From Bacteroidota bacterium (GTDB lineage Bacteria; Bacteroidota; Ignavibacteria; UBA10030), in contig JAKAJH010000015.1 of the NCBI GenBank assembly GCA_021813905.1, positions 1 to 55,570 on the forward strand: a DNA stretch of 55,570 nucleotides, read 5' to 3'. The position numbers and the translations under genes are program-made. The notes beneath the pieces are model-generated. The model was not told the origin of the DNA. It searched no databases and saw only the letters and a list, made by a program, of their open reading frames with translations. Shown in pieces: positions 24,619 through 40,326 of the stretch (the stretch's first letter is position 1; every line of letters begins with the position of its first letter).

Positions 24619-25376
24619 CCGTTGCCCATCCGGAGCGCGGTCGCGCATCACGCCGGCAGCCGTTCGCGGTGCGGGATGTGTCGTTCACCGTCGATGCGGG
24701 CGAAATTTTCGGGATCGTGGGACCGAGCGGCAGCGGAAAGACGACGCTGGCTGCGGCGCTCACCGGACTCCTCCCGCTGCGATCCGGAACGATCCGCGTC
24801 GGCGGAACACCGCTGCACGCGCCGGGAACGCCCGGTCCCGCGCGGCGCTCTCCCGTTCAAATGCTCTTCCAGAATTACTCCGCATCGCTTGATCCGCGGA
24901 TGACCGTTCAGGAATTGCTCCGGGAAGCGGCTTCCACGGCACCGACCGCTCCCGGTTCCCGCGAACTGCTCACACGCGTCGCCGTGTCCGAGAGCGTGCT
25001 TCCGCTCGTTCCCCGCCAACTCAGCGGAGGCCAGCGCCAACGGATCGCCCTCGCCCGAGCCCTCGCGGCACGGCCGTCCGTCCTGGTCGCCGATGAGCCG
25101 ACAAGCGCGCTCGACGTCATCACCCAGGCGCAGGTGCTCCGGGTGATCACCCGCGCGAGTACAGAGGACAGATGCGCAGTCGTGCTCATCTCCCACGACT
25201 CCGATCTCGTTGCCGCTTTGTGCTCGAGGATCGCGCTGCTCCGGAACGGAAGAGTCCGCGCCATCGGAAGCCCCGCCGAAGTCCTGGCGCTGGAGGAGGA
25301 TCCGGTGGAGCAGAATTCGTGGACGGACATTCCGCGTGCGCCGGAATCCGCACGGAGACGGCGCGCAAATGACTAG
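24591..25376 (+). CDS. Peptide ABC transporter ATPase, DppF/OppF-like
   Basis: 261 residues. Walker A GPSGSGKTT, signature LSGGQRQRIALARAL, Walker B VLVADEPTSALD, H-loop ISHD. Lacks a long C-terminal oligopeptide extension, so it is short for the family. Overlaps the first ATPase gene by 28 bases; the ATG at 24591 is preferred over a TTG nine bases earlier. Its end overlaps the start of the binding-protein gene. With the neighbouring ATPase it should form a heterodimer. Confidence 0.9.
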   Translation: MRQLEVDHITVAHPERGRASRRQPFAVRDVSFTVDAGEIFGIVGPSGSGKTTLAAALTGLLPLRSGTIRVGGTPLHAPGTPGPARRSPVQMLFQNYSASLDPRMTVQELLREAASTAPTAPGSRELLTRVAVSESVLPLVPRQLSGGQRQRIALARALAARPSVLVADEPTSALDVITQAQVLRVITRASTEDRCAVVLISHDSDLVAALCSRIALLRNGRVRAIGSPAEVLALEEDPVEQNSWTDIPRAPESARRRRAND

Positions 25377-27126
25377 GACGATCCCCTCATCTGCTATGAT
25401 TGTGATGAAAGACTCTGCCATGAAATGTGCTCCTCTCGCCTGTGTTCGCGCCTTGATGCTGACGGCGTTTGTGTGCGGCGCCGTCCTGGCGCTGTCCGGT
25501 TGCGGCCAGAAGACAGCCGCACCGCCGGCGGGGACGGTCGTCATCGGCATCCCGACTGACGTGAACGCCTTCAATCCGCTGTTCGCGACGGACGTGATGG
25601 CGGAAGAGATCAACGAACTCATCTTCCCGATGCTCGTCAATTCGGAATTTGACACGACGACCGGCACGCTCACCTATACGCCCGGGCTCGCGCGAAGCTG
25701 GGAATGGCGATCAAACGGCGCTGATCTCGTCTTTCACCTCCACCGCAACGCATGCTGGTCGGACAGCGTGCGCATCAGTGCGCGGGATGTGCAGTTCACC
25801 TTTGAGCTCTGCGCCGATCCCGACGTGGAGAGCGTGTGGCAAAATGCCGTGGAAGGACTGCGCCGCACGGCCGACGGCATGCTGGACGTCCGATCCGCCG
25901 TTCAGATCCTCGACGACTCCACGGTGGTCTTCCATTTCTCGAAGGCGTATCCGGGTCAGCTGTTCGACGTGGGCATTCCCGTTATCCCCGAGCACATCTT
26001 TGCAGCCATGCCGCGGAGCGAACTCCGCAGTCATCCGGTGAACCAGGCGCCGATCGGCGCCGGGCCGTTTCGCCTGATCCGGCACACGACGATGCAGGAG
26101 ATCGTGCTCGGACCCAATCCGCTTTCGGTACTTCCCTTCCCTTCACATCTGCAGCGCCTCGTGTTCCGCGTCGTTCCGGACCACCGATCCCGCATCCTCC
26201 AACTGATCTCCGGCGAGATCGACATGATGTCCGGCATCGAACCCGATGATGCGACCCAGATCTCACGCGAAGCGCCTGACGTGCAGCTGATCCCGACCGC
26301 GCCGCGCCGCTATCACTTCATCGGGTGGAACAACATCGATCCCGCGGCCTGGGCGGAATCACATGGCACCGTCGTCCGTCCTCATCCGCTGTTCGGCAGC
26401 GTGCGGGTGCGACAAGCACTGACGATGGCCGTCAATCGTGCGGACCTGACGCGGGCCTTCGCCGGCCGGGATGGCATCGAGGCGGTCGGTCCGGTCTCCC
26501 CGATGTTTCGGGCGGCGTACAACGACAGCCTCCGCCCGTTGCCCTACGATCCCGCGCGTGCGGCGGCATTGCTGACGGAAGAGGGCTGGACCGACTCCGA
26601 CGGCGACGGCATTCTTGATCGCCGGGGAGTCCGCTTCTCGTTTATCCTGAAGGTCCCGAGCGGGAACGGCATGTGGTCCGAGATTGCGACCGTGGTGCAG
26701 AAGCAATTGCGCGACATCCATGTCGATGCCCGCATCGAGTTCGTGGAACGCTCGGTGTTCTGGCCGGACCTGCTGGCGAAGAAGTATGACGCCTGGATCG
26801 CGGGCTTCGAGGTCCCGCTCGAGATGCGCCTGGACGACATGTGGGGATCAGACCTGCAGAAGAATCCGTTCAACGTCCTCTCGTACCGGCAGCCGGCGGT
26901 TGATCGGCTGCTGAAACACCTGCGCACGTTGCGGACGTCGATCGGCGGGGCGGCGGACATCCGCGCCATCCAGACATTGATCGCCGAGGACCAGCCGTGC
27001 ACATTTCTCTTCTGGGAGCGGGGGATGATCGGTTTGAGCCGGCGCGTCCGCGGCGTGCATTCGACCGTCCTCGCCATGACGCACGATGCGTGGAACTGGG
27101 AGACCGCCCCGGCGAGCGGCCGATGA
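25369..27126 (+). CDS. Peptide-binding lipoprotein (SBP family 5)
   Basis: 585 residues from the ATG at 25369, which overlaps the preceding stop. A lipoprotein signal (MLTAFVCGAVLALSGC) is best served by an internal ATG at 25420; either could be used. The mature part has the family-5 pattern: EEINELIFPMLVN, YTPGLARSWEW, DVQFTFELC, HPLFGSVRVRQALTMAVNR and a late LFWERGMIGL. Captures peptides (or nickel-type or sugar ligands in other members) for the permease pair encoded next. Specificity cannot be read from sequence. Confidence 0.88.
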   Translation: MTRTIPSSAMIVMKDSAMKCAPLACVRALMLTAFVCGAVLALSGCGQKTAAPPAGTVVIGIPTDVNAFNPLFATDVMAEEINELIFPMLVNSEFDTTTGTLTYTPGLARSWEWRSNGADLVFHLHRNACWSDSVRISARDVQFTFELCADPDVESVWQNAVEGLRRTADGMLDVRSAVQILDDSTVVFHFSKAYPGQLFDVGIPVIPEHIFAAMPRSELRSHPVNQAPIGAGPFRLIRHTTMQEIVLGPNPLSVLPFPSHLQRLVFRVVPDHRSRILQLISGEIDMMSGIEPDDATQISREAPDVQLIPTAPRRYHFIGWNNIDPAAWAESHGTVVRPHPLFGSVRVRQALTMAVNRADLTRAFAGRDGIEAVGPVSPMFRAAYNDSLRPLPYDPARAAALLTEEGWTDSDGDGILDRRGVRFSFILKVPSGNGMWSEIATVVQKQLRDIHVDARIEFVERSVFWPDLLAKKYDAWIAGFEVPLEMRLDDMWGSDLQKNPFNVLSYRQPAVDRLLKHLRTLRTSIGGAADIRAIQTLIAEDQPCTFLFWERGMIGLSRRVRGVHSTVLAMTHDAWNWETAPASGR

Positions 27127-28100
27127 CGCGCAGCCTGTCCATGACGATTCTCCGGAGGGTCCTGATGGCCGTCCTGATCGTGTTCGGGATGGCGTCGGCC
27201 GTGTTCTGGATCGCCCGTCTTCTGCCCGGCGATCCGTTCGCATTTCGCATCACGCCCGGGATGTCGCCTGCCACGCTGGAAACGCTCCGGCACACGTACG
27301 GACTCGACCGGCCGATCGCGGAACAATACTTCACCTGGCTTCGCAGCGCGCTGAGCGGCGATTTGGGAGTATCCCTGACGACCAACCGGCCGGTGCTCGA
27401 CCTCATCGGTGAAACGCTGCCGAACACAATCCTGCTGGGCACAGCCACGCTGATCCTGCAATTCCTCTTCGGTATCACGGCCGCGGTCGCCAGCGTCCGC
27501 CATCCGCGGGGCCGCCTTGATCGATTCATCGGCGGCGGGACCGTGGTGATGTATTCCGTCCCGAACTTCTGGCTGGGGACTCTCCTGCTCGTGGTCTTCG
27601 CGTTTCATCTGAATCTGTTCCCCGCATCGCAAATGCATTCCGTCGGCTTTCGTCGGCTCTCGGGTCTGCCCGCGACACTCGACGTGCTGTGGCATCTGAC
27701 GCTGCCGGCGCTTACGTTCGCAATCCCCGGCGGGGCACGGGTGGCGCGCTTTCTCCGCGCCACGCTCCACGACGTGCTCCAGGAACCCTTCATCCTGAAC
27801 GCGACGGGATACGGGCTGTCACGGGGTCGCGTACTGCTCCGCTACGCCCTGCCCAACGCCCTCACGCCGGTCATCAGTGTTGCCGGTATTGAGACCGGTA
27901 TTCTTCTGACCGGTACGCTCGTGACCGAGACGCTGTTCGCGTGGCCGGGCATGGGGCGCCTGACCGTGTCCGCGGTGCTTGCGCGGGACTACCCGCTGCT
28001 GATGGGAACCACCATCGTTTCCGGGTGCATCGTGATTGCAGCGAATCTGGCGGCCGACATCCTCCACCGTGTCATCAATCCGCGTCTCCGGACGGAATGA
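27123..28100 (+). CDS. Peptide ABC transporter permease, DppB-like
   Basis: 325 residues, six hydrophobic helices. N-terminal PGDPFAFR, then YGLDRPIAEQYFTW and the ATPase-coupling EAA loop (about 215-245, around DVLQEPFILNATGYGLSRGRV). ATGA overlap with the binding-protein stop. Forms the channel with the second permease. Confidence 0.9.
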   Translation: MTRSLSMTILRRVLMAVLIVFGMASAVFWIARLLPGDPFAFRITPGMSPATLETLRHTYGLDRPIAEQYFTWLRSALSGDLGVSLTTNRPVLDLIGETLPNTILLGTATLILQFLFGITAAVASVRHPRGRLDRFIGGGTVVMYSVPNFWLGTLLLVVFAFHLNLFPASQMHSVGFRRLSGLPATLDVLWHLTLPALTFAIPGGARVARFLRATLHDVLQEPFILNATGYGLSRGRVLLRYALPNALTPVISVAGIETGILLTGTLVTETLFAWPGMGRLTVSAVLARDYPLLMGTTIVSGCIVIAANLAADILHRVINPRLRTE

Positions 28101-28104
28101 CGTC

Positions 28105-29394
28105 ATGGCAGATCCCGCAATGATCCCGGCGAGTACCGAACGTCTGCCCGGCCGGCTCCTTCGCCGGAGCGGACCGATCCTGATCAGCGTCATTCTGTGG
28201 GCGCTGACCATCGATCGCGCCGACATCCTCGTCGCCGGCATCCGGTCATTCGGCGTGAGCATGGCGCTCTTCATGACGGCTCCTGCGAAGGCCTGGGCGA
28301 TGATGTCCACGGCACTGACGGAAGCGTGGATCGCATGCGCTTTCTGGCCCGTCATTCTTGCCGTCTTCACGGCGGTGGCGGTCCTGCCGGAGGAAGTCCG
28401 CGGGAACCTGCGCACCCGCATCGCTCCGGTGGAACGACTCGTCACCTCGCTTCCGCGCAATCCCCGATGGACGGCAGGCGTGTGGCTGCTGGCATTCTTC
28501 GTGTTCGTCGCAATCGAAGCGCCGATCCTCGTCACGACGGATCCGCTGACGCAGGGCGACCTCGGAACAACGCGGCTGGTGCCGCCGCTGAGCGCCACCA
28601 CCGTCGCCGACCGGCAGATACCGGAAGCCGGGCCGGGGAGTTCCGGCCTGGAAACCATGCTCGCGCGCGACCTCGTGACGCTCCGGATCCGATCGGCGCC
28701 GCCCGAGCGTTCCGGCAACGCGGATCATCCGATGGTCTTCCTGCTCGGCACCGACAGCGTCGGGCGCGACGTGCTGAGCCGCGTCATCGTCGGCACACGC
28801 GTGTCATTGATGATCGGCATTCTGGCGACCGTCGGCGCGCTTCTCCTCGGCAGTCTGATCGGATTTGTGGCCGGCCTCGCAGGCCGGTGGCCCGACAGCA
28901 TCCTGATGTGGATCGTGGACGTGTTCCTCTCCATTCCCTCGCTGTTCCTGGTCATTACGTTCGCGTTCTTTCTCGGAAACTCTGTCGCCCAGCTGATCCT
29001 CGTGCTGGTGCTGTCCGGTTGGATGGGGGTGGCGCGGATCGTCCGCGGTGAAGTGCTTCACCTGCGACGGCGCGAGTTCGTGCTTGCGGCCCGGCTGTTC
29101 GGCCAGCGGAGCGGCACGATCATCCGGCGGCATCTTCTGCCTAACGTTTTGCCGACGATCCTGACGGCGGCAATCCTGCAGGTCAGCGATACGATTCTGG
29201 CCGAAGCGGCACTCGGATTTCTGGGATACGGCGTCCAGCCGCCGGTCCCCAGCTGGGGAAACATGCTGGGCGAAGCGGTCGCGCATCTCGAGACCGCCTG
29301 GTGGCTGGCGGTATTTCCCGGACTCTGCCTGGTGACCCTGCTGATCTCCCTGCATCTGCTCGCAGACGAGTTGCAGCAGGAATGGAAGGCCTAG
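28105..29394 (+). CDS. Peptide ABC transporter permease, DppC-like, with N-terminal extension
   Basis: 429 residues. The C-terminal half is a typical DppC permease: LGTDSVGRDVLSRVIVGTRVSL, EFVLAARLFG coupling loop, EAALGFLGYG and PSWGNML. Oddity: about 130 residues at the front include several extra hydrophobic segments (about 20-90 and 125-150), beyond the single N-terminal helix usual for the family. Start at 28105 lies four bases after the previous stop. Ends four bases before the kinase gene, so importer and kinase are likely co-transcribed. Confidence 0.88.
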   Translation: MADPAMIPASTERLPGRLLRRSGPILISVILWALTIDRADILVAGIRSFGVSMALFMTAPAKAWAMMSTALTEAWIACAFWPVILAVFTAVAVLPEEVRGNLRTRIAPVERLVTSLPRNPRWTAGVWLLAFFVFVAIEAPILVTTDPLTQGDLGTTRLVPPLSATTVADRQIPEAGPGSSGLETMLARDLVTLRIRSAPPERSGNADHPMVFLLGTDSVGRDVLSRVIVGTRVSLMIGILATVGALLLGSLIGFVAGLAGRWPDSILMWIVDVFLSIPSLFLVITFAFFLGNSVAQLILVLVLSGWMGVARIVRGEVLHLRRREFVLAARLFGQRSGTIIRRHLLPNVLPTILTAAILQVSDTILAEAALGFLGYGVQPPVPSWGNMLGEAVAHLETAWWLAVFPGLCLVTLLISLHLLADELQQEWKA

Positions 29395-29398
29395 TCCG

Positions 29399-32300
29399 AT
29401 GGCCGCACTGAATGCCCGGTACGAAGTCGTGCGCCAGCTCGGTGTCGGTTCGACGGGAGAGATCTATCTCGCGCTGGACTTCCTTCATGACGGATTGCCC
29501 GTCGCCATCAAGCGTGCGCCCGCGCGGAGTCTCAGCGAAGAGCTGTTCCAGGAGATCCGGAGAGAGTTTTTCATTCTCAGTGGTCTCGATCATCCGAATC
29601 TTGCAAAGGCCTTCGACATCGGCGTGTGCGAACGCGACGCCCCGCCTTTCCGCGTCGGCGACGTGTTCTCCGTCCGGGAATATGTGGACGGCCTGGCTTT
29701 GCAGCAGGCAGCAGCAGGATTGTCGTGGTCCGATCTCTGCGAACTGGCGTTCCAGCTCGCATGCACGGTGGACTACGTGCATCGTCACCAGCTGATCCAC
29801 CACGACATCAAGCCGGAAAACATCCTCGTCAGCGACGGTATGATCAGCGGTGAGCAGGTGCCGGTCGCCCGGCTCATCGACTTCGGGTTCGCGATCGCTG
29901 CGGTCTCGCCCGGCACGTCCGTCCGCGGCACACTGGACTATCTCGCGCCCGAACTGATCAGTCGCACCGCCTCCGATCACCGCGTGGACCTGTACTCGCT
30001 CGGGATGACGCTGTTCCGCGTCATTGCCGGTCACCTTCCGTTCGAAGACCTGCCCACGATCGAAAGCCTCAAACGCCGCCAGACAGTCGCGCTGCCGCCG
30101 CTTGAGTCCTACCGGCGCGACGTGCCTCCGGCACTGGCAACCATGGTCGCTCGTTTGTGCGACCCCGATCCCGATCGGCGCCCCCGACGCGGGCAGGAAG
30201 CTGCCGAGATCATCGCCCCGATCCTCCGTCGAAGAGAACTCTTCGAATCGTACTATCGCCGCATCCGGCCGCATCTCCTCATCGGACGCCGTCAGGAGAT
30301 CCGGCACGTGACCCGCCATCTCGGCATCGAATCCGGCGAGATGCCGCATCCCGCCGGCAGCCGCCGAAGCCCCCTTTTCATAGTCGGCCCCTCGGGCATT
30401 GGCAAGACGCGGGTGCTGAGTGAAGTGCAGAGACTCGCCCGCTCGGCCGGCCTGATGACGCTGCACGCCATCTGTACACCGGGGAGTGCCCGGCCGCTCG
30501 CCGCGCTTCTGCCCGTCATCAAAGAATTAGCGTATTCGTGTCATACCTCCCTCCGCCAGGAACACAATCTGCCGCTGTCGGGAGACAACCTGATCGAATC
30601 GCTGTTGCCCATCCTCCGCACCCATGGCGCCGGAACCGAGTCCATGCCGATGGAACGGCTGTCCCGACGCGCGGCGGAGGAAGTGCTGTGGTTTCTGCAG
30701 AACTGCTCCTTCAGCCGGCCCGCTCTCCTGTGGATCGATGATCTTGATGCCGCGGATCCCGCGACGCTCGCCGTCTGCCGTGAGCTGGCGACGATGAAGC
30801 ACGCACCGGACCTGTCGCTGATCGTCACCGCGGAATCCGAGGACCGGATCCACGCCCAGTTCGGCGCCCCTCGCGTGGACCCCGCCGGGATCCTGCGCCT
30901 CACTGAACTCGCCGATGGAGAAGTCGCCGAGTTCGTTCGCGTCTTCCTCGATGTCGAATCCGCACCGCCGTCGATCGGAACACAGGTCGTGCAGACGCTG
31001 GGCGGAAACCCGCTGATCCTGTCTGAGTTCCTTTCCCCATTCATGGGCGCCCGCGATCTCTCTCCGTTGAACGCATCGCTCGTTTCCATCCGCTCGGGTG
31101 CTACTCCGCGCGGACTTGCCTCACTGTTCGAGCACCGCTATCGTGCCATCGGTCCGGAGGAACGCCGCGTGCTTGATGTGCTGAGTTGCTTTCCGGTCGA
31201 GGTGGAAGTGGAAACGCTCGCGCAGCTTCTGCCGCTCACGGGCGCTGCGCTTCGACTCATTCTCCTGAAGCTGGTCAACGAAGGGACGCTCACCACCATC
31301 GGACATTTACGGATCGTCCGGTTCTCACATTCGCAGTATCGGCAGTTCGTGCATGAGAGGCTGGGACGCGATCGGGCGACGATGCATGCCCGATTGGCCG
31401 CCGTGCTTGAGGATATGTACGTGGGACAACTTGATGCCAACGCGGCGGAGATCGCCTACCACTGCGAGGAAGCCGGACTGCGACAGAAGGCATTCCGTTA
31501 CTACCGCCAGGCCGCCGCCCTCGAAGAGCGCCGCTCCGCCCATCCGGAAAGCGCGCGCCTTCTGCAGAAGGCACAAGCACTGGCAGCAAGCAGCGAGGAA
31601 CGGTCAGACGTTCTCCGGCAACTTGCTGAGGCGTACCGGCTCGCCGCCGACTACCGGCGCGCCGAGAGTGCCTACCGGGAACTGCTGAGTCTTCCGAACC
31701 TGCCCCGCGCACAACGGTTCGTATTTCTCCGAACACTGGGATCGATCCAGACTATGACCGGCGATGTGCAATCCGCGGGCGACACGTTTCAGCAGGCAGC
31801 GCGGCTTGCCGAGACGTCGGACGAGCGGCTGGCGATCGAACTGGAGCTTGCGAGCCTGGATATCGGCACCGCGAGATACCAGGCGGCCCGGAACCGGCTG
31901 GAGCGGCTTCGGGGCGAGCTTCCCCCGGATACCGGGCCGGAGCTCATCCTTGATGTCCACAATAAGCTCGGAGTTGTGAGTTTTCACGAAGCGCGCTTCG
32001 ACGAAGCACTTCAACTATTCCTTGAAGCGTCACGCGTAGCTGAGAGTCTTGGGAATCCTGACAAGATGATTTCGCCTCTCCTGAACCTGGGGAATGTCCA
32101 CAGCGCAAAAGGCTCATACGACGAAGCTCAAGGCTACTGGGAACGGGCTTTGACTTTGACAAAAAAGGTTGGCAACATGAACCTTGAGGCCCGGATTTCC
32201 AACAATCTGGGCATCACGCAGTACGTGCGAGAGCAGTTTGGCGATGCTTTCCGGAGCTATCAGCGAGCGCTGCAACTCTTTGACAGGCTTGGGAATAGAC

Positions 32301-33109
32301 CGGGCAAAGCATTGGGTATGACCAACCTTGGGGAGGTTCAGTTCGCTCTCGCCGACTACGAGCAAGCGCTCTACAGTTGGGAGGATGCGCTGCGCTTGTT
32401 CGAAGAACTCCAGGACTCGCAGGGCATGTCGGAGACATCTGTCAATATTGCGCATGTTCATGCCATGCTGGGAGATCTGGGGGCAACTCGCCGGTGGCTG
32501 GAATCAGCAGATCAGATCATGAAGACGAGCGGAAGCACGACATTGACCGGCATGGCGGAACGCGTGACTGCATTGCGATGTCATTCGAGCGGCGACGAGC
32601 CAGAGGCGTTGGTGCATGTCAAGGCGGCATGCGAGGCGATGCAGGCGACATCGGACTGGCACGGTCTTGCCTCGACGCTGACCCTCCGCGGATGGATTCA
32701 ATACGCACTCGACCGGCACGGCGATGCCGCAGGATCTTTTCAGGAAGCGCGCACCTTGGGCGATTCCCGACAATTCCGCATCGCGTGCGCTGAGGCCGAC
32801 CTCGGACTCAGTGCCGTTGCGGCGATCGGAACGGTCCAATCCCTCTCTCACCCCCTGGAGTATCTGAAACACGCGCTGGGGCACGTCGAGCAAAGCGCTC
32901 TCACAGAAACCTCGTGGAAAGTGCCGTATGCGCTCGCGCTCGCCTATCACCGGCGGGGCCTGTTGTCAAGAGCGCAGGACTATCTTGAACGCGCCAACAA
33001 GGCACTGCAGAGCCTTGCCGCGCTGTACCGATCAGACGCGTACCGCACGCAATTCCTTTCGTCTCACGGCCGTTCCCTCCCCCTTTCCATTCCGCACCGC
33101 GCGAACTGA
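29399..33109 (+). CDS. Ser/Thr protein kinase-ATPase-TPR sensor protein
   Basis: 1236 residues, no membrane segment. Kinase domain (about 8-275): GVGSTGEIYLA loop, Lys38, catalytic Asp136 in HHDIKPEN, Asp161 in DFGFA, LAPE and DLYSLGM. The residue before the catalytic Asp is His, making it a non-RD kinase not expected to need activation-loop phosphorylation. ATPase domain: Walker A GPSGIGKT at 330-337, Walker B LLWIDDLD (about 445), AAA/STAND-like. Then some ten TPR repeats (about 690-1200). The architecture resembles PknK-type regulators that integrate signals and act on transcription. The TPR codons (roughly 31950-32560) are visibly less GC-rich at third positions than the kinase part. The sigma-54 activator follows nine bases later. 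Confidence 0.9.
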   Translation: MAALNARYEVVRQLGVGSTGEIYLALDFLHDGLPVAIKRAPARSLSEELFQEIRREFFILSGLDHPNLAKAFDIGVCERDAPPFRVGDVFSVREYVDGLALQQAAAGLSWSDLCELAFQLACTVDYVHRHQLIHHDIKPENILVSDGMISGEQVPVARLIDFGFAIAAVSPGTSVRGTLDYLAPELISRTASDHRVDLYSLGMTLFRVIAGHLPFEDLPTIESLKRRQTVALPPLESYRRDVPPALATMVARLCDPDPDRRPRRGQEAAEIIAPILRRRELFESYYRRIRPHLLIGRRQEIRHVTRHLGIESGEMPHPAGSRRSPLFIVGPSGIGKTRVLSEVQRLARSAGLMTLHAICTPGSARPLAALLPVIKELAYSCHTSLRQEHNLPLSGDNLIESLLPILRTHGAGTESMPMERLSRRAAEEVLWFLQNCSFSRPALLWIDDLDAADPATLAVCRELATMKHAPDLSLIVTAESEDRIHAQFGAPRVDPAGILRLTELADGEVAEFVRVFLDVESAPPSIGTQVVQTLGGNPLILSEFLSPFMGARDLSPLNASLVSIRSGATPRGLASLFEHRYRAIGPEERRVLDVLSCFPVEVEVETLAQLLPLTGAALRLILLKLVNEGTLTTIGHLRIVRFSHSQYRQFVHERLGRDRATMHARLAAVLEDMYVGQLDANAAEIAYHCEEAGLRQKAFRYYRQAAALEERRSAHPESARLLQKAQALAASSEERSDVLRQLAEAYRLAADYRRAESAYRELLSLPNLPRAQRFVFLRTLGSIQTMTGDVQSAGDTFQQAARLAETSDERLAIELELASLDIGTARYQAARNRLERLRGELPPDTGPELILDVHNKLGVVSFHEARFDEALQLFLEASRVAESLGNPDKMISPLLNLGNVHSAKGSYDEAQGYWERALTLTKKVGNMNLEARISNNLGITQYVREQFGDAFRSYQRALQLFDRLGNRPGKALGMTNLGEVQFALADYEQALYSWEDALRLFEELQDSQGMSETSVNIAHVHAMLGDLGATRRWLESADQIMKTSGSTTLTGMAERVTALRCHSSGDEPEALVHVKAACEAMQATSDWHGLASTLTLRGWIQYALDRHGDAAGSFQEARTLGDSRQFRIACAEADLGLSAVAAIGTVQSLSHPLEYLKHALGHVEQSALTETSWKVPYALALAYHRRGLLSRAQDYLERANKALQSLAALYRSDAYRTQFLSSHGRSLPLSIPHRAN

Positions 33110-33118
33110 CACAGATCG

Positions 33119-34564
33119 ATGGGAACCCCTTTGCAGCACGGTTCAGGCCTTACTGTCGGCGTCCAGGGATCCGCGGTGTTGCTTCGCGCGCTTCGGCAGG
33201 CCTTCTCCGATTTGGAGCATGTCACGGTCGAGGCCGTCTCCTCGGGCGGGACGGAGTCTCTACAGCAACTCCCGGGCCTGATCGTGGTTGAGGTTCGTCC
33301 GGAACAGTCCAATCTGACCGCATTTCTCGGCGATCTCCGCGCCCGCTTCGGTAGCGCGCCGATCGTTGCGACGAGCGCCGCGGCGGATCACCGCGTGGCC
33401 GTTCAGATGGTCCGCGCCGGAGTGTTGGACTATCTCGTTTGGCCCGACGAACAACACAGGCTTTTCGATATTGTCGAAGGATTGATCGCAGACTCCAGCG
33501 CCCATACCGAGCAGACGGCGTACGTGGAGTCCCAGGCAAAGTCGTTCGATTTTTCGCAGGTGATCGGTCAGTCGCCCGAGATTCAGAAAACCATTGCCAT
33601 GGCGCGCAAGGTGGCCGGGACGGACCACGTCACCGTCCTCATCCTCGGAGAGACCGGTACCGGCAAAGGGCTTCTCGCAAAGGCGATTCATTACGCCAGT
33701 CCGCGGCGGGAACTTCCGTTTGTCGAAATTGCCTGCTCCGCCCTTCCTGAAACCTTGCTCGAATCGGAGTTATTCGGACACGAACGGGGAGCGTTCACGG
33801 ACGCCCGGGAGCGGAAGATCGGCCTGTTTGAAATTGCGGGCCGGGGCACGATCTTCCTGGATGAAATCGGCGACATCAGTGCCGCGGTCCAGTCGAAACT
33901 TCTCAAGGTTCTCGAAGAGAAAACGATGAGACGGGTCGGTGGCGTAAAGGATATTCAGGTCGAGGCACGCATTATCGCCGCGACCAGCCGCAATCTCAAC
34001 GATTTGGTTGCAAAAGGGGCGTTCCGACGGGATCTGTACTATCGCCTCACGATTGTGCCCTTGATGCTCCCGCCGCTTCGCGATCGACGTAGTGATATTC
34101 CGGCACTTGCACAACATTTCCTCAAGCACTTTAGCAGCCAAAACGCGAAATCCGATATTCGGCTGTCAGCCGACGCGCTTCGGCTTCTCGTCGAGCACGC
34201 GTGGGATGGAAATGTCCGCGAGCTCATGCATGCAATCGAACGGGCTGTCGTCTTGACGGAGGAGGAAGAGATCGGGCGGGATCTCTTTACTCTGATCTCC
34301 AGGCATCCCGTCGGTGCAACAGCGGAAGAGCCCGACAAGGAAGCATCTCATGCCGATCAGGCTCCGGAAGACCTTCTGAGCCTCAGTTTGCCCCTCCAGA
34401 ACGCGGACATCGAGCACGCCGAGAAGTTGTTAGTTCGCGAGGTGCTGCAACGCGTTCGAGGCAACAAAAGCCGTGCGGCCGCCATGCTCAAAATCTCGCG
34501 GCCCCGCCTTGAGCGCATCCTGCGCCAGGATCCTGAGTTCTTCCGATCCACCTTCACCAAGTAG
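33119..34564 (+). CDS. Sigma-54 activator (enhancer-binding protein) with a pseudo-receiver
   Basis: 481 residues. Receiver-like domain (about 10-122), AAA+ domain with Walker A GETGTGKG (177-184), the sigma-54 contact loop GAFTDA (224-229, a variant of GAFTGA), Walker B TIFLDEIGD, and a Fis-type helix-turn-helix at the end (GNKSRAAAMLKISRPRLERIL). Oddity: the receiver lacks the N-terminal acidic pair, has Glu58 where the phosphorylated Asp should be and Trp where the conserved Lys should be, so it cannot be phosphorylated in the usual way and Glu may mimic the active state. Control is probably through the kinase-TPR protein encoded just upstream (inference). A likely target promoter lies 190 bp downstream. 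Confidence 0.92.
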   Translation: MGTPLQHGSGLTVGVQGSAVLLRALRQAFSDLEHVTVEAVSSGGTESLQQLPGLIVVEVRPEQSNLTAFLGDLRARFGSAPIVATSAAADHRVAVQMVRAGVLDYLVWPDEQHRLFDIVEGLIADSSAHTEQTAYVESQAKSFDFSQVIGQSPEIQKTIAMARKVAGTDHVTVLILGETGTGKGLLAKAIHYASPRRELPFVEIACSALPETLLESELFGHERGAFTDARERKIGLFEIAGRGTIFLDEIGDISAAVQSKLLKVLEEKTMRRVGGVKDIQVEARIIAATSRNLNDLVAKGAFRRDLYYRLTIVPLMLPPLRDRRSDIPALAQHFLKHFSSQNAKSDIRLSADALRLLVEHAWDGNVRELMHAIERAVVLTEEEEIGRDLFTLISRHPVGATAEEPDKEASHADQAPEDLLSLSLPLQNADIEHAEKLLVREVLQRVRGNKSRAAAMLKISRPRLERILRQDPEFFRSTFTK

Positions 34565-34635
34565 ATCGACCTTCGGCTCCGATCGTGCTGCCGATCTGAA
34601 CCCGAATTCGTGCCCTTTTGCAGGTAGCATCGTCC

Positions 34636-34667
34636 CGTTACACCATGCGTGTAACGAATCGTTACAC
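34636..34667 (+). promoter_or_regulatory. Triple half-site, probable enhancer for the sigma-54 activator
   Basis: Three perfect copies of one 8-base half-site: CGTTACAC (34636-34643), its inverse GTGTAACG (34649-34656) and CGTTACAC again (34660-34667), spaced by 5 and 3 bases, so two overlapping perfect palindromes share the middle copy. They sit about 90-120 bp upstream of a -24/-12 promoter, the usual place for a bacterial enhancer, directly after the activator gene. Confidence 0.75.
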
Positions 34668-34754
34668 CTCTTCCTGCAAATGAGGATCGGTCGTTGAGGG
34701 GTCCGTTTTGATGGATCATTTGCGCAAAATTCGCAGAGAGAAGTGAGATGCACG

Positions 34755-34769
34755 TGGCACACCGATTGC
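34755..34769 (+). promoter_or_regulatory. Sigma-54 (-24/-12) promoter
   Basis: TGGCAC-N5-TTGC with GG and GC exactly ten bases apart, matching the conserved core of the sigma-54 consensus. Transcription would begin near 34781 on the plus strand and read toward the lipoprotein, TPR and histidine kinase genes. Confidence 0.8.
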
Positions 34770-34780
34770 GATGTAGCCAC

Positions 34781-35260
34781 TTGCATCCAAGCGACGAAGA
34801 GCGTTTACGCCGAACTCGTTCGCTTCGGTACATTCAGTGTAAGCCATGTGCCGAAGACTGAGTATCCCCGCGGATTCGTCGGCACCATTCAACTATTCCG
34901 GAAGGAATTCAGGCCAAGACATGCGCGACGCTGCGCGCCGCCTTGTTGACGTCATCGACATAGTGTTCCTGCGGTTCGAAATTGACAGGATCATTCGTTC
35001 ACGGACGCGACCGCGCCGTCAGCGCTTTCGCGATCCGATCCGACCGCCGGAGCGTCCGCCGATCATGCTGCAAGAGCGGGATTCGCGCAAGATTCGTCCG
35101 CGCTCCTGTTCCAACGCAGACATCGTCAATGCGCACGCATCCGGTGATGCGGTGACGGTGTTCATTCGATCACACAGTCAATTGGAAACCGATTCAATCA
35201 CGAAATTCACAACAACTCCAACCCTTCACTGATCTGCCTTCATCCCCAAGGAGGTTCACC
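34781..35260 (+). other. Long leader between the sigma-54 promoter and the lipoprotein gene
   Basis: About 480 bases with no convincing gene. An open frame from 34846 or 34921 to 35232 encodes a very Arg-rich product with weak start signals and no family resemblance. A palindrome TGACGTCA is at 34947-34954. The region is unusually long for a simple leader; it might hold a small RNA or regulatory structure, but I see no specific one. Confidence 0.4.
35248..35254 (+). promoter_or_regulatory. Ideal ribosome binding site
   Basis: AAGGAGG six bases before the ATG at 35261. It is the strongest ribosome site I noticed in the window and suggests high expression of the lipoprotein when the sigma-54 promoter is active. 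Confidence 0.8.
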
Positions 35261-35854
35261 ATGCGGAACACACTTACCGTTTTTGCTGTTGCCGCCCTGT
35301 TGCTGGGATTGGTCAGCTGTACCATCGACAATCCCGTCGGGGCCCCACTTGCGCCGCCTCAAGGCGTTGTTTCATCGTCCGATGCCGGCGGAGTGTATCA
35401 TCCATTCCAGCTGCCTGCGACCTCAGGTCTTCACAAGACGGTCCCGGTCACGGCAACGATCACTGCGGCCGGCGGCGGTCAGATCGCGTTCGAGCATTCC
35501 GAGGGAGCATTCTCGGTGAAGATTGTCCTGACGTTCGGGCCGGGAGCGGTTTCGAAGGACATGGACCTCACGATGCTTGCTGACGATCAGACGCTGGCGG
35601 CGACATTCGGGCCGGACGGGACGAAGTTCGGCACGCCGGGGAGCTTATATTTCGAAGCCCACGGGCTCGATCTGTCATCGGTCTCCAATCCTGCCGACCT
35701 CGTGAAACGTCTTCACTTGCTCTACTTCAACCAGACTACCGGGCTTTGGGAACCGATCTCGGCGAGCGGCTTCAGCGTCGATGTCGCAACGGGCACGGTG
35801 ATCTGCCAGAAGGGCGTTATCGAACATTTCTCTCGGTACGGATTTGGACTCTAA
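35261..35854 (+). CDS. Lipoprotein with ZU5-like beta domain
   Basis: 197 residues. Lipobox LGLVSC near residue 20, then a beta-sandwich-like region with GGGQIAF, FGPGAVSKDMDLTM, FGPDGTKF and the ending VIEHFSRYGFGL. The pattern resembles ZU5-type domains of secreted bacterial proteins, but this is a weak call. First gene after the sigma-54 promoter, with an ideal ribosome site. Likely an envelope protein made in quantity under the activator's control; its role is unknown. Confidence 0.75.
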   Translation: MRNTLTVFAVAALLLGLVSCTIDNPVGAPLAPPQGVVSSSDAGGVYHPFQLPATSGLHKTVPVTATITAAGGGQIAFEHSEGAFSVKIVLTFGPGAVSKDMDLTMLADDQTLAATFGPDGTKFGTPGSLYFEAHGLDLSSVSNPADLVKRLHLLYFNQTTGLWEPISASGFSVDVATGTVICQKGVIEHFSRYGFGL

Positions 35855-35908
35855 CATGTCTCTCGGCATCCATACAAACTCATGCGCGTGAAGGAGAAAG
35901 GATTGACC

Positions 35909-37153
35909 ATGCAAACCATGGATCAGCACAAGAGTTTCGCCGAGAGCATGGGCCATCTGCTCAAGCGCTTTTGTCCGGAGGATCTGCTGAAGATCCTCGG
36001 TGAGGAGCTCGAACAGCTCAAGGCTGTCGAAGCCGAGCTCACCGAAAAGGCAAAGGCCAAAGAGGCCGATTTGCACGGCGAGGCGAGCGTCATCGAGACA
36101 GGGCACCTCGAGAATATCATCACCGAGTGCAGCCGAGGACTTGCGAAGCGACCTTTCCTGGAGCTTCTGCTCGATCTCGGATCACTGTGTCTGAAGTACG
36201 GTGAATTCACCACCGCAAAATCCGTCTACAAGCGGATCATCGAAACGGCAGGATCGGACGCGAAGCTCAGCACGTTGAGCGGCAAAGCGTATGCGAAGCG
36301 CGCGGAAATCCGGCTCCGTCAGGCCCACTGGACGGCGGCTGTCAACGATCTCAAGAAAGCGGCCACACTGTTCAAGAAGGCGAAGGATGCCGAGGGTCTC
36401 GCGATGGTCGAGAACAGCTTCGGCGTCTACGCAACCGAGCAAGGCGATATGAAGAAAGCGGCGTCTCATTTCAAGAAGGCCCAGACGGGATTCGAAAAGG
36501 CCGGAAACAGCGAGCGCGCCAACACCGCGCTGATGAACCTCGGCATCCTGGCAAGTATCGCCGGACGTTGGGAGGAGGGACTCGCGTACTACCAACGTAT
36601 CCTTCCGCAGTTCGAAAAGCTGGGTCAGGTCTCGCGTCTTGTCGAGGTCCATCACAATATCGGCATGCTCTTCCTGGCTAAAGGCGACGCAAAAGCGGCC
36701 ATCAACCAGTTCGACGAGAGCCTGAACCATGCCAGCCTGCTCCACTACCGGGCTTTCATCGGCATGGGGTTCCTCGGGAAAGCTGCCGCATACGCCCGAC
36801 TCACCGATTTTCCGTTGGCAATGGTGTTCGTGCAGCGAGCGCTCGGGATCTTCCGGCAGCTCAGCGACCACCTCAGCATTGCCGATGCGTATAAGGTGAA
36901 GGGGATCATTCACCGCGAACTCGATCGCCCGCAACTGGCCGAGCTGTACTTCCGGACCAGCCTGCGCCTCAACGAGGAATACAACAATCCGTTGAACCTC
37001 GGCGAGACGTACCTGGAACTGGGCCGGCTCTATGTGCGGACAAAGGAACCCGCGAAGGCAGCTCAGGCGCTCAAGAGGGCATCGTCCTACTTCAAGCGAC
37101 TCGGTGCACTGCATGAGGCCAAGAGCGCGCAAACGCTCATGGCAAACGCCTGA
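35909..37153 (+). CDS. Soluble TPR-repeat protein
   Basis: 414 residues with no signal or membrane segment. A charged helical N-terminus (about 1-70) and about seven TPR units (about 75-410), for example AMVENSFGVYATEQGDMKKAASHFKKA and AYKVKGIIHRELDRPQLAELYF. The units resemble the TPR part of the upstream kinase in style. The start at 35909 follows AAAGGA at proper spacing; the ATG at 35882 would add nine residues. No catalytic domain, so an adaptor or regulator. Confidence 0.85.
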   Translation: MQTMDQHKSFAESMGHLLKRFCPEDLLKILGEELEQLKAVEAELTEKAKAKEADLHGEASVIETGHLENIITECSRGLAKRPFLELLLDLGSLCLKYGEFTTAKSVYKRIIETAGSDAKLSTLSGKAYAKRAEIRLRQAHWTAAVNDLKKAATLFKKAKDAEGLAMVENSFGVYATEQGDMKKAASHFKKAQTGFEKAGNSERANTALMNLGILASIAGRWEEGLAYYQRILPQFEKLGQVSRLVEVHHNIGMLFLAKGDAKAAINQFDESLNHASLLHYRAFIGMGFLGKAAAYARLTDFPLAMVFVQRALGIFRQLSDHLSIADAYKVKGIIHRELDRPQLAELYFRTSLRLNEEYNNPLNLGETYLELGRLYVRTKEPAKAAQALKRASSYFKRLGALHEAKSAQTLMANA

Positions 37154-37170: not shown

Positions 37171-38463
37171 ATGCAGATTCAGGAGTTCAACGTGGCACGC
37201 CAAAACACCACTCCCGACCTCGCGTCGGGGGTGGTGCCCGGCGACGACCGAGCACGCAATCTCGAGATCATCCTCGACGTCTCAAAGACGATCAGCCACT
37301 CCTTGATCTTGGAGGAGGTTCTCCGCCTCGTGCTCGATCACGCGATCCGCGTGGCGCGTGCTGAGCGCGGATTTCTGCTTCTGGCTGACGACCACAAGGC
37401 CCTTCAGTGTGCCCTGACCCGCGATGCCACGGGTCGCGCGTTAGAAACCGAGGATGCGCTGTACAGCCGGACCGTGGTGGAGGACGTCTTTGCATCCGGC
37501 GAATCGATCTGCGTCGAGAATGCACAGCTGGACGATTTTTATGACCGGCGCGCAAGCGGCCGTTCTCTGGAGCTCCAGACCATCCTCTGCTCCCCCTTGA
37601 CCGTACGCGATGAGAAGATCGGCGTCCTGTATGTCGACAGTCGTCACATCCAGGCAGTACACCGCGACGAGATCATTCATCTGTTCGAAATCCTCGCGGG
37701 CCAGGCGGCAACAGCCATCAAGAATGCGCAGCTGTACGAGCAATTGCGGAAGGCGTTCGCCGAATTGGAATCTCTGAACGAGCGGCTCATCAATTTCGAG
37801 CGGCTTGCCACCAAAGGGGAGATTGCTGCCGAGGTAAGCCACGAACTGAACAACCTCCTTGGCGTGGTCGCTTTCCAGGTCACGCTGTTCCGCCGCGGAG
37901 CGGGACGATTTACCAGGAAGGAGATGGAAGAGCGTCTTGACCAGATGTCTGAAGCGGTCAAGAAGATCGCGGTGTTCTCAACGGGATTGGCCGAGTCGGC
38001 CCATCTGACGACGAAGAAGGTCCCCGGCAATTTCAACGAGTGCATTCGCGAGGCAGTCCATTTCCTCAAGCCGCTGCGGAAGTTCCGCATGGCATCCTGG
38101 ATGACCGAATTCGATGACCGGATTCCAGTCGTTTCGTTCGATCACCAGCAGATGCAACAGATCGTGCTGAATCTGCTGAATAATGCCGTCGAAGCACGGC
38201 CGCAGGTTCAGATCGGAGTGCGCACGTCCTTCGACCAGGAACGCAACGTTGTCCTGTTGACCGTGCGAGATGACGGGCCGGGAATTGAACCGGAGGTCAT
38301 GGAGAAGCTATTCAAGGAAAAGGTCACTACGAAGCCCACCGGCCACGGCTACGGATTGCCCATCTGTCGGAAGATCGTGGAAAACCTGGGCGGGACGATC
38401 CAGGCTGCTTCGGAGCAAGGCCGAGGGGCGGAATTCCGCATCGATATCCCGATCGATGGGTAG
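37171..38463 (+). CDS. Soluble GAF-domain sensor histidine kinase
   Basis: 430 residues with no membrane segment. GAF domain (about 30-190), coiled linker (QLYEQLRKAFAELESLNERL), phosphoacceptor His224 in EVSHELNNLLG, then the ATPase boxes: N-box VLNLLNNAVEA, G1 DDGPGIEP, G2 GHGYGLPICRKIVE. The HELNN dimerisation helix is of the NtrB-like type. No response regulator lies beside it. The sigma-54 activator's receiver lacks the Asp, so the best candidate partner in the window is the TPR-receiver protein at 22806 (inference). Confidence 0.92.
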   Translation: MQIQEFNVARQNTTPDLASGVVPGDDRARNLEIILDVSKTISHSLILEEVLRLVLDHAIRVARAERGFLLLADDHKALQCALTRDATGRALETEDALYSRTVVEDVFASGESICVENAQLDDFYDRRASGRSLELQTILCSPLTVRDEKIGVLYVDSRHIQAVHRDEIIHLFEILAGQAATAIKNAQLYEQLRKAFAELESLNERLINFERLATKGEIAAEVSHELNNLLGVVAFQVTLFRRGAGRFTRKEMEERLDQMSEAVKKIAVFSTGLAESAHLTTKKVPGNFNECIREAVHFLKPLRKFRMASWMTEFDDRIPVVSFDHQQMQQIVLNLLNNAVEARPQVQIGVRTSFDQERNVVLLTVRDDGPGIEPEVMEKLFKEKVTTKPTGHGYGLPICRKIVENLGGTIQAASEQGRGAEFRIDIPIDG

Positions 38464-38690: not shown

Positions 38691-40166
38691 TCACCGCACG
38701 CTGTACAGATCGATTGCACGAGCGATGGCCCGGCGGCAGACAAGACAGAATTCGTTCGTTGGACTCGAGATCATCAGGCAGTACACCATGGGGCGGTACA
38801 GCCCGCGGGCCGCATATCCGGCTCCCTCGAATGCCCCCACTCGCGGTTCAGACCAGTGATACGCTTCGCGGACGGAATCAATCTGCAGACGCAGGCGTTC
38901 ATCCTCTCTCTTCCACTCCGTTTCCGTTGCCCGCATTCGACTCCCCTGCCCCGAACCATCCTTTTCGCGTCGCCGCAGAGCCCCGAGGCTGTCCCGGACC
39001 GACCATCGGCGGGCGGAAAGGCTGTCCACGAGATCACGGCCGTACGGAGTGGGAACCGGGATCCCCGGCGTCAGAAGGTCTTTCCACTTCACATTCGGCG
39101 GATCCAGCAGCGCGGTGATGTTCGGTTCAAGCGGTTCAACGCCCGGCGCATAGAACTCATTGTACGCCACATCGGACGAGTAATATTCATCCGCCAAACC
39201 CGCAAATGCGTGACCGAATTCGTGCGCAAACACCTGAAGACTGGCACGGTGATCGGCGGTTGTAATGCAGTAGTCGTTGTAGATCCCGCCTCCTCCGTAC
39301 CGCGGACTGTTGACCAGGACAACGATCGCGTCATAGGGAACTTCGGCGGCCATCCGCCGCAGCGCAAAGCCATCCTCGGTCAGCAAGTAGCGATCCAATC
39401 CAAAAGCGTTGAAGCTTGACTGAAGGACCGTGCTTCGAAAGACGTGCTGCCGTGGCTCGTCGGTCCCCTCCTCCACCGACGGCCGAAAGATCGTTGAGAC
39501 GTTAAAGCGCTGCTTCAGGGATGCATACGGCTCGACGGTGAACAGCGCACCGACAAATCGGTTCACATCGGATTCGAACTTCGCTTGCTCTGCGGCCGTG
39601 TAACCCTCCGCAAGAAAGACCAGGTCCACGTGCGTGTGCGGATCACCGTTTGCGATCGGGTGCATGATGCGGTCTCCCCGGTCGGGGGATTCTCGTATGA
39701 TCCCGACGTCCCTCGGATCGATCTGAAACTTCGCCGTGGTGTGCAAAAGGTTCTTCCTGTCACGTGACTCGAGGACCACGAACGCTGCCCGCTTCGGCAT
39801 GGGAATGCGCACCGCACGTTCGAACGTCCTGCGGATCCCATTCTGCGCCGGCGCTGTGGTTTGATACTCCCCCAACATGTCATCATATCCGGCCGCATAG
39901 ATCAGCCGTTTCGTCACGCTGTCGTACACGCTTACTTTGTGGTGACCACGCTCGAACGGCTGCAGCAGAACGGCAGGATTCCCGGGCCAAATCGGTTCCT
40001 CGATGAGCGATCCGACAGTCACCTCCTCGTTCCTCGCATCTCCGGTACAAAAGAGCTCGATACGCAGGGCCCGGTCGAAAAAGAATTCACCGAAAGACGG
40101 TTGCTCCTGCGCCTTCGCCGGGAGAAGGACTGTCATCATCAGCAGACTCAACGTCCAATGTCGCAT
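38691..40166 (-). CDS. Exported M64-family metallopeptidase
   Basis: 491 residues. Signal peptide (LSLLMMTVLLPAKAQ). An N-terminal beta domain (about 20-170) and an M64 catalytic domain with PHTHVDLVFLAEGYT, YGGGGIYNDYC and the zinc motif HEFGHAFAGLADEYY. A C-terminal stretch with three cysteines (around YCLMISSPTNEFCLVC) completes the family pattern. Family founders cleave IgA, but environmental members are general exported peptidases. Start at 40166 chosen for the GGAG site. Confidence 0.9.
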   Translation of the reverse strand: MRHWTLSLLMMTVLLPAKAQEQPSFGEFFFDRALRIELFCTGDARNEEVTVGSLIEEPIWPGNPAVLLQPFERGHHKVSVYDSVTKRLIYAAGYDDMLGEYQTTAPAQNGIRRTFERAVRIPMPKRAAFVVLESRDRKNLLHTTAKFQIDPRDVGIIRESPDRGDRIMHPIANGDPHTHVDLVFLAEGYTAAEQAKFESDVNRFVGALFTVEPYASLKQRFNVSTIFRPSVEEGTDEPRQHVFRSTVLQSSFNAFGLDRYLLTEDGFALRRMAAEVPYDAIVVLVNSPRYGGGGIYNDYCITTADHRASLQVFAHEFGHAFAGLADEYYSSDVAYNEFYAPGVEPLEPNITALLDPPNVKWKDLLTPGIPVPTPYGRDLVDSLSARRWSVRDSLGALRRREKDGSGQGSRMRATETEWKREDERLRLQIDSVREAYHWSEPRVGAFEGAGYAARGLYRPMVYCLMISSPTNEFCLVCRRAIARAIDLYSVR

Positions 40167-40326
40167 GCGATCTCCAGAATGTTGACCAAGATGGCCACCA
40201 AATACTTTCCGTGCAAGTGCGGCAACGGGGCACACGACGCCTGCATCCCGCAATCCCTTCGCGGTGCCCCCCGCCGCTTTTCACGAAGTTTCAGAATTGC
40301 GAAACACGGCAGATCGTTCTGCACTT

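What the first reader, a model, noticed from the sequence alone, without database searches (positions are those of the whole stretch)
34636..34769. Overlapping palindromic enhancer plus textbook sigma-54 promoter
The half-site CGTTACAC occurs three times in alternating orientation with spacers of 5 and 3, so two perfect palindromes share a central arm. TGGCAC-N5-TTGC lies 88 bases after the last copy. Chance occurrence of an 8-mer three times in 32 bases is negligible. The design suggests cooperative loading of an activator hexamer.
Basis: partly seen in the sequence, partly recalled or inferred. Interest (0 to 1): 0.75.

Follow-up and report, generated by a model that had tools for sequence, protein, structure and literature searches.

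The report
Tandem activator sites before sigma-54 promoter
A bacterial gene switch keeps two docking sites for its activator protein just ahead of a sigma-54 promoter; the same arrangement, docking sequence included, is conserved in many related bacteria, which lets the activator and its target genes be identified from sequence alone.

Summary
In detail: three CGTTACAC half-sites (34636, 34649, 34660) and TGGCAC-N5-TTGC (34755). Comparison with 17 other promoter regions shows that the operator is a 17-bp dyad, TGTAACG-N3-CGTTACA, used as two tandem copies 21-24 bp apart and about 80-125 bp before a -24/-12 element. In the window the downstream copy is perfect (34650-34666). The upstream copy (34626-34642, AGCATCGTCCCGTTACA) has a degenerate left arm.

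In 98 genomes of the order the exact dyad occurs five times, always beside an orthologue of the sigma-54 activator (EBP) gene immediately upstream. Three relatives carry operator and promoter with a relocated target operon, not at the end of the EBP gene. Across the class, one residue of the EBP's DNA-binding helix (Arg or not) covaries with operator base 6 (C or A). The EBP is therefore very probably the ligand.

The target operon is lipoprotein - TPR protein - GAF histidine kinase, in an Ignavibacteriales genome. New member of a known kind (closest: GcsR, TGTAACG-N4-CGTTCCG in tandem). In a sister order the same pair faces a secreted 16-aa tandem-repeat protein.

The parts
34626..34642 (+). 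upstream operator (op1), AGCATCGTCCCGTTACA: right arm intact, left arm degenerate
   Evidence: second-best site in the region under a matrix trained without this lineage, exactly 24 bp before op2, p<0.002; GCATC-N5-[G/A]TTACA retained in the same-genus relative
34650..34666 (+). downstream operator (op2), TGTAACG-AAT-CGTTACA, perfect dyad (19 bp, 34649-34667, with outer G/C)
   Evidence: identical dyad type next to orthologous EBPs in G045 and G079
34755..34769 (+). -24/-12 (sigma-54) promoter TGGCACACCGATTGC; predicted start near 34781
   Evidence: rpoN present
33119..34564 (+). sigma-54 activator (EBP): degenerate receiver-like N-terminus, AAA+ with GAFTDA loop, Fis-type HTH with recognition helix SRPRLERI
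   Evidence: Pfam PF00158, PF25601, PF02954; orthologues
29399..33109 (+). Ser/Thr protein kinase - AAA_16 ATPase - TPR protein, presumed sensor of the EBP
   Evidence: Pfam; the kinase-EBP pair is conserved in the relatives read in full
25210..27126 (+). oligopeptide-type solute-binding protein (SBP_bac_5), ORF as listed
   Evidence: same position in L046
26997..28100 (+). Dpp/Opp-type permease, BPD_transp_1, ORF as listed
28036..29394 (+). second Dpp/Opp-type permease subunit
   Evidence: homologous order in L046 and L097
34781..35260 (+). predicted ~480-nt untranslated leader, no conserved ORF or known RNA family
35261..35854 (+). first predicted target gene: small lipoprotein ending in HFSRYGFG
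   Evidence: no Pfam hit; same family in 11 loci
35882..37153 (+). target gene: TPR protein
37171..38463 (+). target gene: GAF-domain histidine kinase
   Evidence: same order in relatives

Best explanation
This is the enhancer and promoter of the operon lipoprotein - TPR protein - GAF histidine kinase. The sigma-54 activator encoded just upstream binds, as dimers, to two tandem 17-bp operators (TGTAACG-N3-CGTTACA, 24 bp centre to centre, centred at about -147 and -123). Once switched on, probably by the Ser/Thr kinase/TPR protein encoded before it, the activator forms its AAA+ ring, loops to sigma-54 RNA polymerase at 34755-34769 and opens the promoter. Shown here by sequence: the anatomy, the conservation of sites and spacing, movement of the site with the operon, covariation of helix and operator, and presence of rpoN. 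Inferred: binding itself, kinase control, oligomerisation and the start site.
For: 1) Exact TGTAACG-N3-CGTTACA in 98 genomes of the order: five places, all in the 3' flank of an EBP orthologue (own, G045, three in G079). 2) A -24/-12 site lies 121-216 nt after the EBP stop in 11 of 14 orthologous loci. 3) The three exceptions keep operator and promoter in front of a relocated operon: G001 (contig C278, CATTACA..TGTAACGAATCGTTTCA then TGGCACGCTCCTTGC) and G034/G039 (TGTAAC sites 22-23 bp apart and TGGCATATTGCTTG[C/T] before TPR-kinase). 4) Leave-lineage-out matrix: best site p<0.01 in 15 of 18 regions, second-best site 21-24 bp away in 12 of 18. 5) In the ~700-nt leader shared with G001 the operator block (82% over 44 nt) and the start-codon region are the significant matches; the -24/-12 aligns too. 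6) Recognition helix SRP[RK]L[DEN]x: x=R goes with operator base 6 = C (13 of 15 loci), other residues with A (32 of 33), Fisher p=7e-9; in the sister order a perfect TGTA..TACA 17-mer occurs in 27 of 49 flanks against 0.23 expected. 7) rpoN present; GAFTDA is a listed functional variant (PMC4641369).
Against: No binding, transcription or expression data. G061, L107 and L118 have a promoter but no clear operator of this kind at the expected place. The covariation is confounded by phylogeny and base composition, although Arg lineages with 34-40% G+C (L170, L102, L105, L179) still carry C, and one site in L147 (x=L) is TGTAACG-like. The predicted leader in the window is unusually long (about 480 nt). 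G001 is a 55%-complete metagenome bin. Control by the kinase is inferred only from gene order.
Confidence: 0.88

Rival explanations
1. The three half-sites are bound as two overlapping palindromes (N5 and N3) by a regulator that reads both.
For: The literal sequence; G001 keeps the same three-half-site layout with spacers 5 and 3.
Against: Relatives show separate complete dyads with an N3 spacer and a 23-24 bp period (G079, L106, L102); the N5 relation is the gap between tandem dyads and disappears when the period is 23.
Confidence: 0.06
2. A different DNA-binding protein (not the adjacent EBP) binds the dyad, as repressor or co-activator of the same promoter.
For: No binding experiment exists; the genome encodes at least 13 related activators.
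Against: Site found only where the EBP orthologue or its relocated operon is; helix/operator covariation; position upstream of -24/-12 is that of an activator.
Confidence: 0.05
3. The inverted repeat is a terminator or RNA element of the EBP transcript.
For: It lies 72-103 nt after the EBP stop codon and is self-complementary.
Against: No T-run or terminator-like site; no RNA family; it travels with the downstream operon, not with the EBP gene, in three relatives.
Confidence: 0.01

Closest known systems
GcsR of Pseudomonas aeruginosa and its gcs2 enhancer (PMC4894688)
   Same: sigma-54 activator; 7-bp arm TGTAACG identical; several tandem dyads before an RpoN promoter; apparently a single target operon
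   Different: spacer N4 (18 bp) against N3 (17 bp); GcsR is TyrR-like and responds to glycine; this EBP has a receiver-like N-terminus and follows a Ser/Thr kinase gene; different target genes
TyrR box TGTAAA-N6-TTTACA (as cited in PMC4894688)
   Same: TGTA core; the TGTAAA form is the operator of the sister-order EBPs
   Different: spacing (6+6+6 against 6+5+6); the window EBP scores 256 bits against the TyrR model, cut-off 576
CbrB subsites TGTTAC/GTAACA (PMC6296734)
   Same: several related half-sites 20-25 bp apart upstream of a sigma-54 promoter
   Different: CbrB subsites are non-palindromic and the half-site letters differ
NtrC/AtoC-type response regulators
   Same: receiver-like region, AAA+, Fis HTH
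   Different: receiver match below the Pfam cut-off and Glu at the apparent phospho-acceptor position; neighbouring sensor is a Ser/Thr kinase

Membership tests
bacterial enhancer-binding protein / sigma-54 promoter pair | AAA+ sigma-54 interaction domain with GAFTGA-type loop | tested here: met
   PF00158 219 bits; GAFTDA in all 14 orthologues; variant listed as functional in PMC4641369
bacterial enhancer-binding protein / sigma-54 promoter pair | -24/-12 promoter conserved at the target | tested here: met
bacterial enhancer-binding protein / sigma-54 promoter pair | dyad operators ~100 bp upstream, recognised by the EBP | tested here: met
   conservation and covariation; physical binding not tested
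bacterial enhancer-binding protein / sigma-54 promoter pair | sigma-54 gene in the genome | tested here: met
   PF04552 182 bits, G000:C29
bacterial enhancer-binding protein / sigma-54 promoter pair | transcription depends on rpoN and the EBP | not testable with these tools
   needs mutants or in vitro transcription
TyrR/GcsR family | TyrR-type protein (model score above cut-off, ACT/PAS N-terminus) | tested here: not met
   256 bits against cut-off 576; no ACT or PAS domain in Pfam
two-component response regulator (NtrC type) | functional receiver domain | tested here: not met
   Response_reg 19.8 bits, cut-off 30.2; Glu in place of the apparent acceptor Asp (IVVEV) read from sequence

The most novel reading that the evidence does not exclude
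The conserved set (oligopeptide transporter - TPR Ser/Thr kinase - EBP - sigma-54 promoter - exported product) is a peptide-sensing feedback circuit. The EBP would drive export of a lipoprotein or, in the sister order, of a secreted protein made of 2-16 nearly identical 16-residue repeats (e.g. SNSQLDELGSRYGWTR). Fragments would be re-imported by the adjacent permease and sensed by the TPR kinase.
Probability: 0.1. Interest if true: 0.85.

Novelty: new member of a known kind. Interest (0 to 1): 0.5.

Why it matters
It links an uncharacterised activator family to its operator and to its target operon purely from sequence, in a class (Ignavibacteria) for which searches of the held open-access library found no sigma-54 activator work. 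The paired change in recognition helix (Arg or not) and operator base 6 (C or A) gives a directly testable specificity rule for Fis-type helix-turn-helix activators. The module also points to a conserved sigma-54-controlled secreted repeat protein with no description found.

Tried and rejected
Counting TGGCAC-N5-TTGC genome-wide: not enriched over the reversed pattern, so uninformative alone. Looking for further members of a regulon in the same genome: none. Terminator and RNA-element readings: no support. A conserved small ORF in the 480-nt leader shared with G001: none found; the weak hits lie in the operator block. Reading the first palindrome (N5) as its own operator: rejected on the tandem period in relatives. 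G034/G039 first looked like exceptions without a site; the site was then found before their TPR-kinase operon. Structure prediction was not run: it would not decide DNA binding. A direct file of the genome was not available.

Full report
Observation. Chance expectation for the 8-mer is 0.49 in the whole window, and the paired repeat is unique in the 3.08-Mb genome. The -24/-12 string alone is not enriched in the genome, so it needs independent support.

Setting. The site lies in the 3' flank of a gene (33119-34564) for a sigma-54 activator with a receiver-like N-terminus below the Pfam cut-off, an AAA+ domain with GAFTDA and a Fis-type HTH. That gene follows a 1236-aa Ser/Thr kinase - AAA_16 - TPR protein (29399-33109) and oligopeptide-type transporter genes. 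Downstream are a small lipoprotein (35261), a TPR protein (35882) and a GAF histidine kinase (37171). The genome encodes sigma-54. Named records carrying the homologous TPR gene are mostly Ignavibacteriales/Ignavibacteria metagenome bins.

Comparison within the order. A protein search of 98 genomes gave 14 loci with an EBP orthologue, the window's own included (45-55% identity for the others). In 11 of 14 a -24/-12 site lies 121-216 nt after the EBP stop, followed by a lipoprotein of the same family. Exact TGTAACG-N3-CGTTACA occurs five times in those 98 genomes, always in that flank: once in the window, once in G045, three times in tandem in G079.

The three exceptions are informative. In G001 (same genus) the EBP is followed by an unrelated convergent radical-SAM-like gene (assignment by reading, not by a family search). 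The lipoprotein-TPR-kinase operon sits on another contig and carries the same three half-sites with the same spacers, then TGGCACGCTCCTTGC. In the leader shared with G001 the operator block (82% over 44 nt) and the start-codon region are the significant matches, and the -24/-12 element aligns. In G034 and G039 the TGTAAC sites (22-23 bp apart) and TGGCATATTGCTTG[C/T] lie in front of the TPR-kinase operon further down. The element therefore travels with the target operon.

Architecture. A 17-mer matrix trained without the tested lineage finds a best site with p<0.01 in 15 of 18 promoter regions (not in G061, L107, L118). The second-best site anywhere in the region lies 21-24 bp from it in 12 of 18. 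Several regions are close relatives, so the number of independent cases is smaller. G085, G065 and G044 were not used in training. The conserved design is two (in G079 three) tandem dyads with a period of about 2.2 helical turns. In the window op2 (34650-34666) is perfect and op1 (34626-34642) keeps its right arm, which is why an 'N5 palindrome' seems to exist.

Who binds. In a sister order 54 of 164 genomes carry the same EBP. The kinase-EBP pair was read in L097 and L098, with permease genes before it, and L099 has ORFs of matching size and order. The EBP flank there carries TGTAAAW-N3-WTTTACA: a perfect TGTA..TACA 17-mer occurs in 27 of 49 regions against 0.23 expected from shuffles. The base at position 6 tracks the last residue of SRP[RK]L[DEN]x: Arg with C in 13 of 15 loci, other residues with A in 32 of 33 (Fisher p=7e-9; four further loci were mixed or had neither base). 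Phylogeny and base composition confound this test, but Arg lineages with 34-40% G+C (L170, L102, L105, L179) still have C, while L172 and L173 (34-37% G+C, Lys/Asn) have A. This is the best evidence that the EBP reads the dyad.

Known relatives. GcsR binds three tandem TGTAACG-N4-CGTTCCG sites before an RpoN promoter, and TyrR binds TGTAAA-N6-TTTACA (PMC4894688). The window EBP is not a TyrR family member by score or domains. CbrB uses TGTTAC/GTAACA subsites 20-25 bp apart (PMC6296734). GAFTDA is a listed functional variant of the loop (PMC4641369). Searches of the held library found no paper describing this module.

Mechanism. Shown by sequence: operators, promoter, conservation, movement with the operon, covariation. 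Inferred from established EBP biology: dimer binding, ring assembly, looping and promoter opening. Inferred from gene order only: activation through the Ser/Thr kinase-TPR protein. The predicted start is near 34781 with a leader of about 480 nt without a conserved ORF or RNA family.

Wider point. In the sister order the first gene behind the promoter is often a secreted protein with 2-16 nearly identical 16-residue repeats (24 of 58 loci by a simple pattern) or a lipoprotein of the HFSRYGF type. Together with the peptide-type transporter this suggests, but does not show, a peptide-linked circuit.

Noticed in passing
L097 7520-8089; L099 7515-8000; L098 ~5990-6350 (partly N); first gene in 24 of 58 sister-order loci: Secreted protein of 2-16 near-identical 16-aa repeats (SNSQLDELGSRYGWTR type) directly behind the EBP and a sigma-54-like site; repeats uniform within a gene but different between species.
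   Followed up: partly
L065 (G044) and L060 (G067): The target operon begins with two or three successive lipoprotein genes of the same family, i.e. local duplication of the first target gene.
   Followed up: no
L046 7130-7933; L059; L063: A PP2C-type phosphatase gene joins the module in some relatives (Pfam-confirmed in L046 only), a plausible counterpart of the Ser/Thr kinase.
   Followed up: no
window 34781-35260 and L092 1183-1857: Very long predicted leaders (about 480 and 680 nt) in this genus; other relatives have roughly 50-370 nt.
   Followed up: partly
window 38691-40253 (-): Peptidase M64 (IgA peptidase family) gene, convergent with the histidine kinase gene.
   Followed up: no
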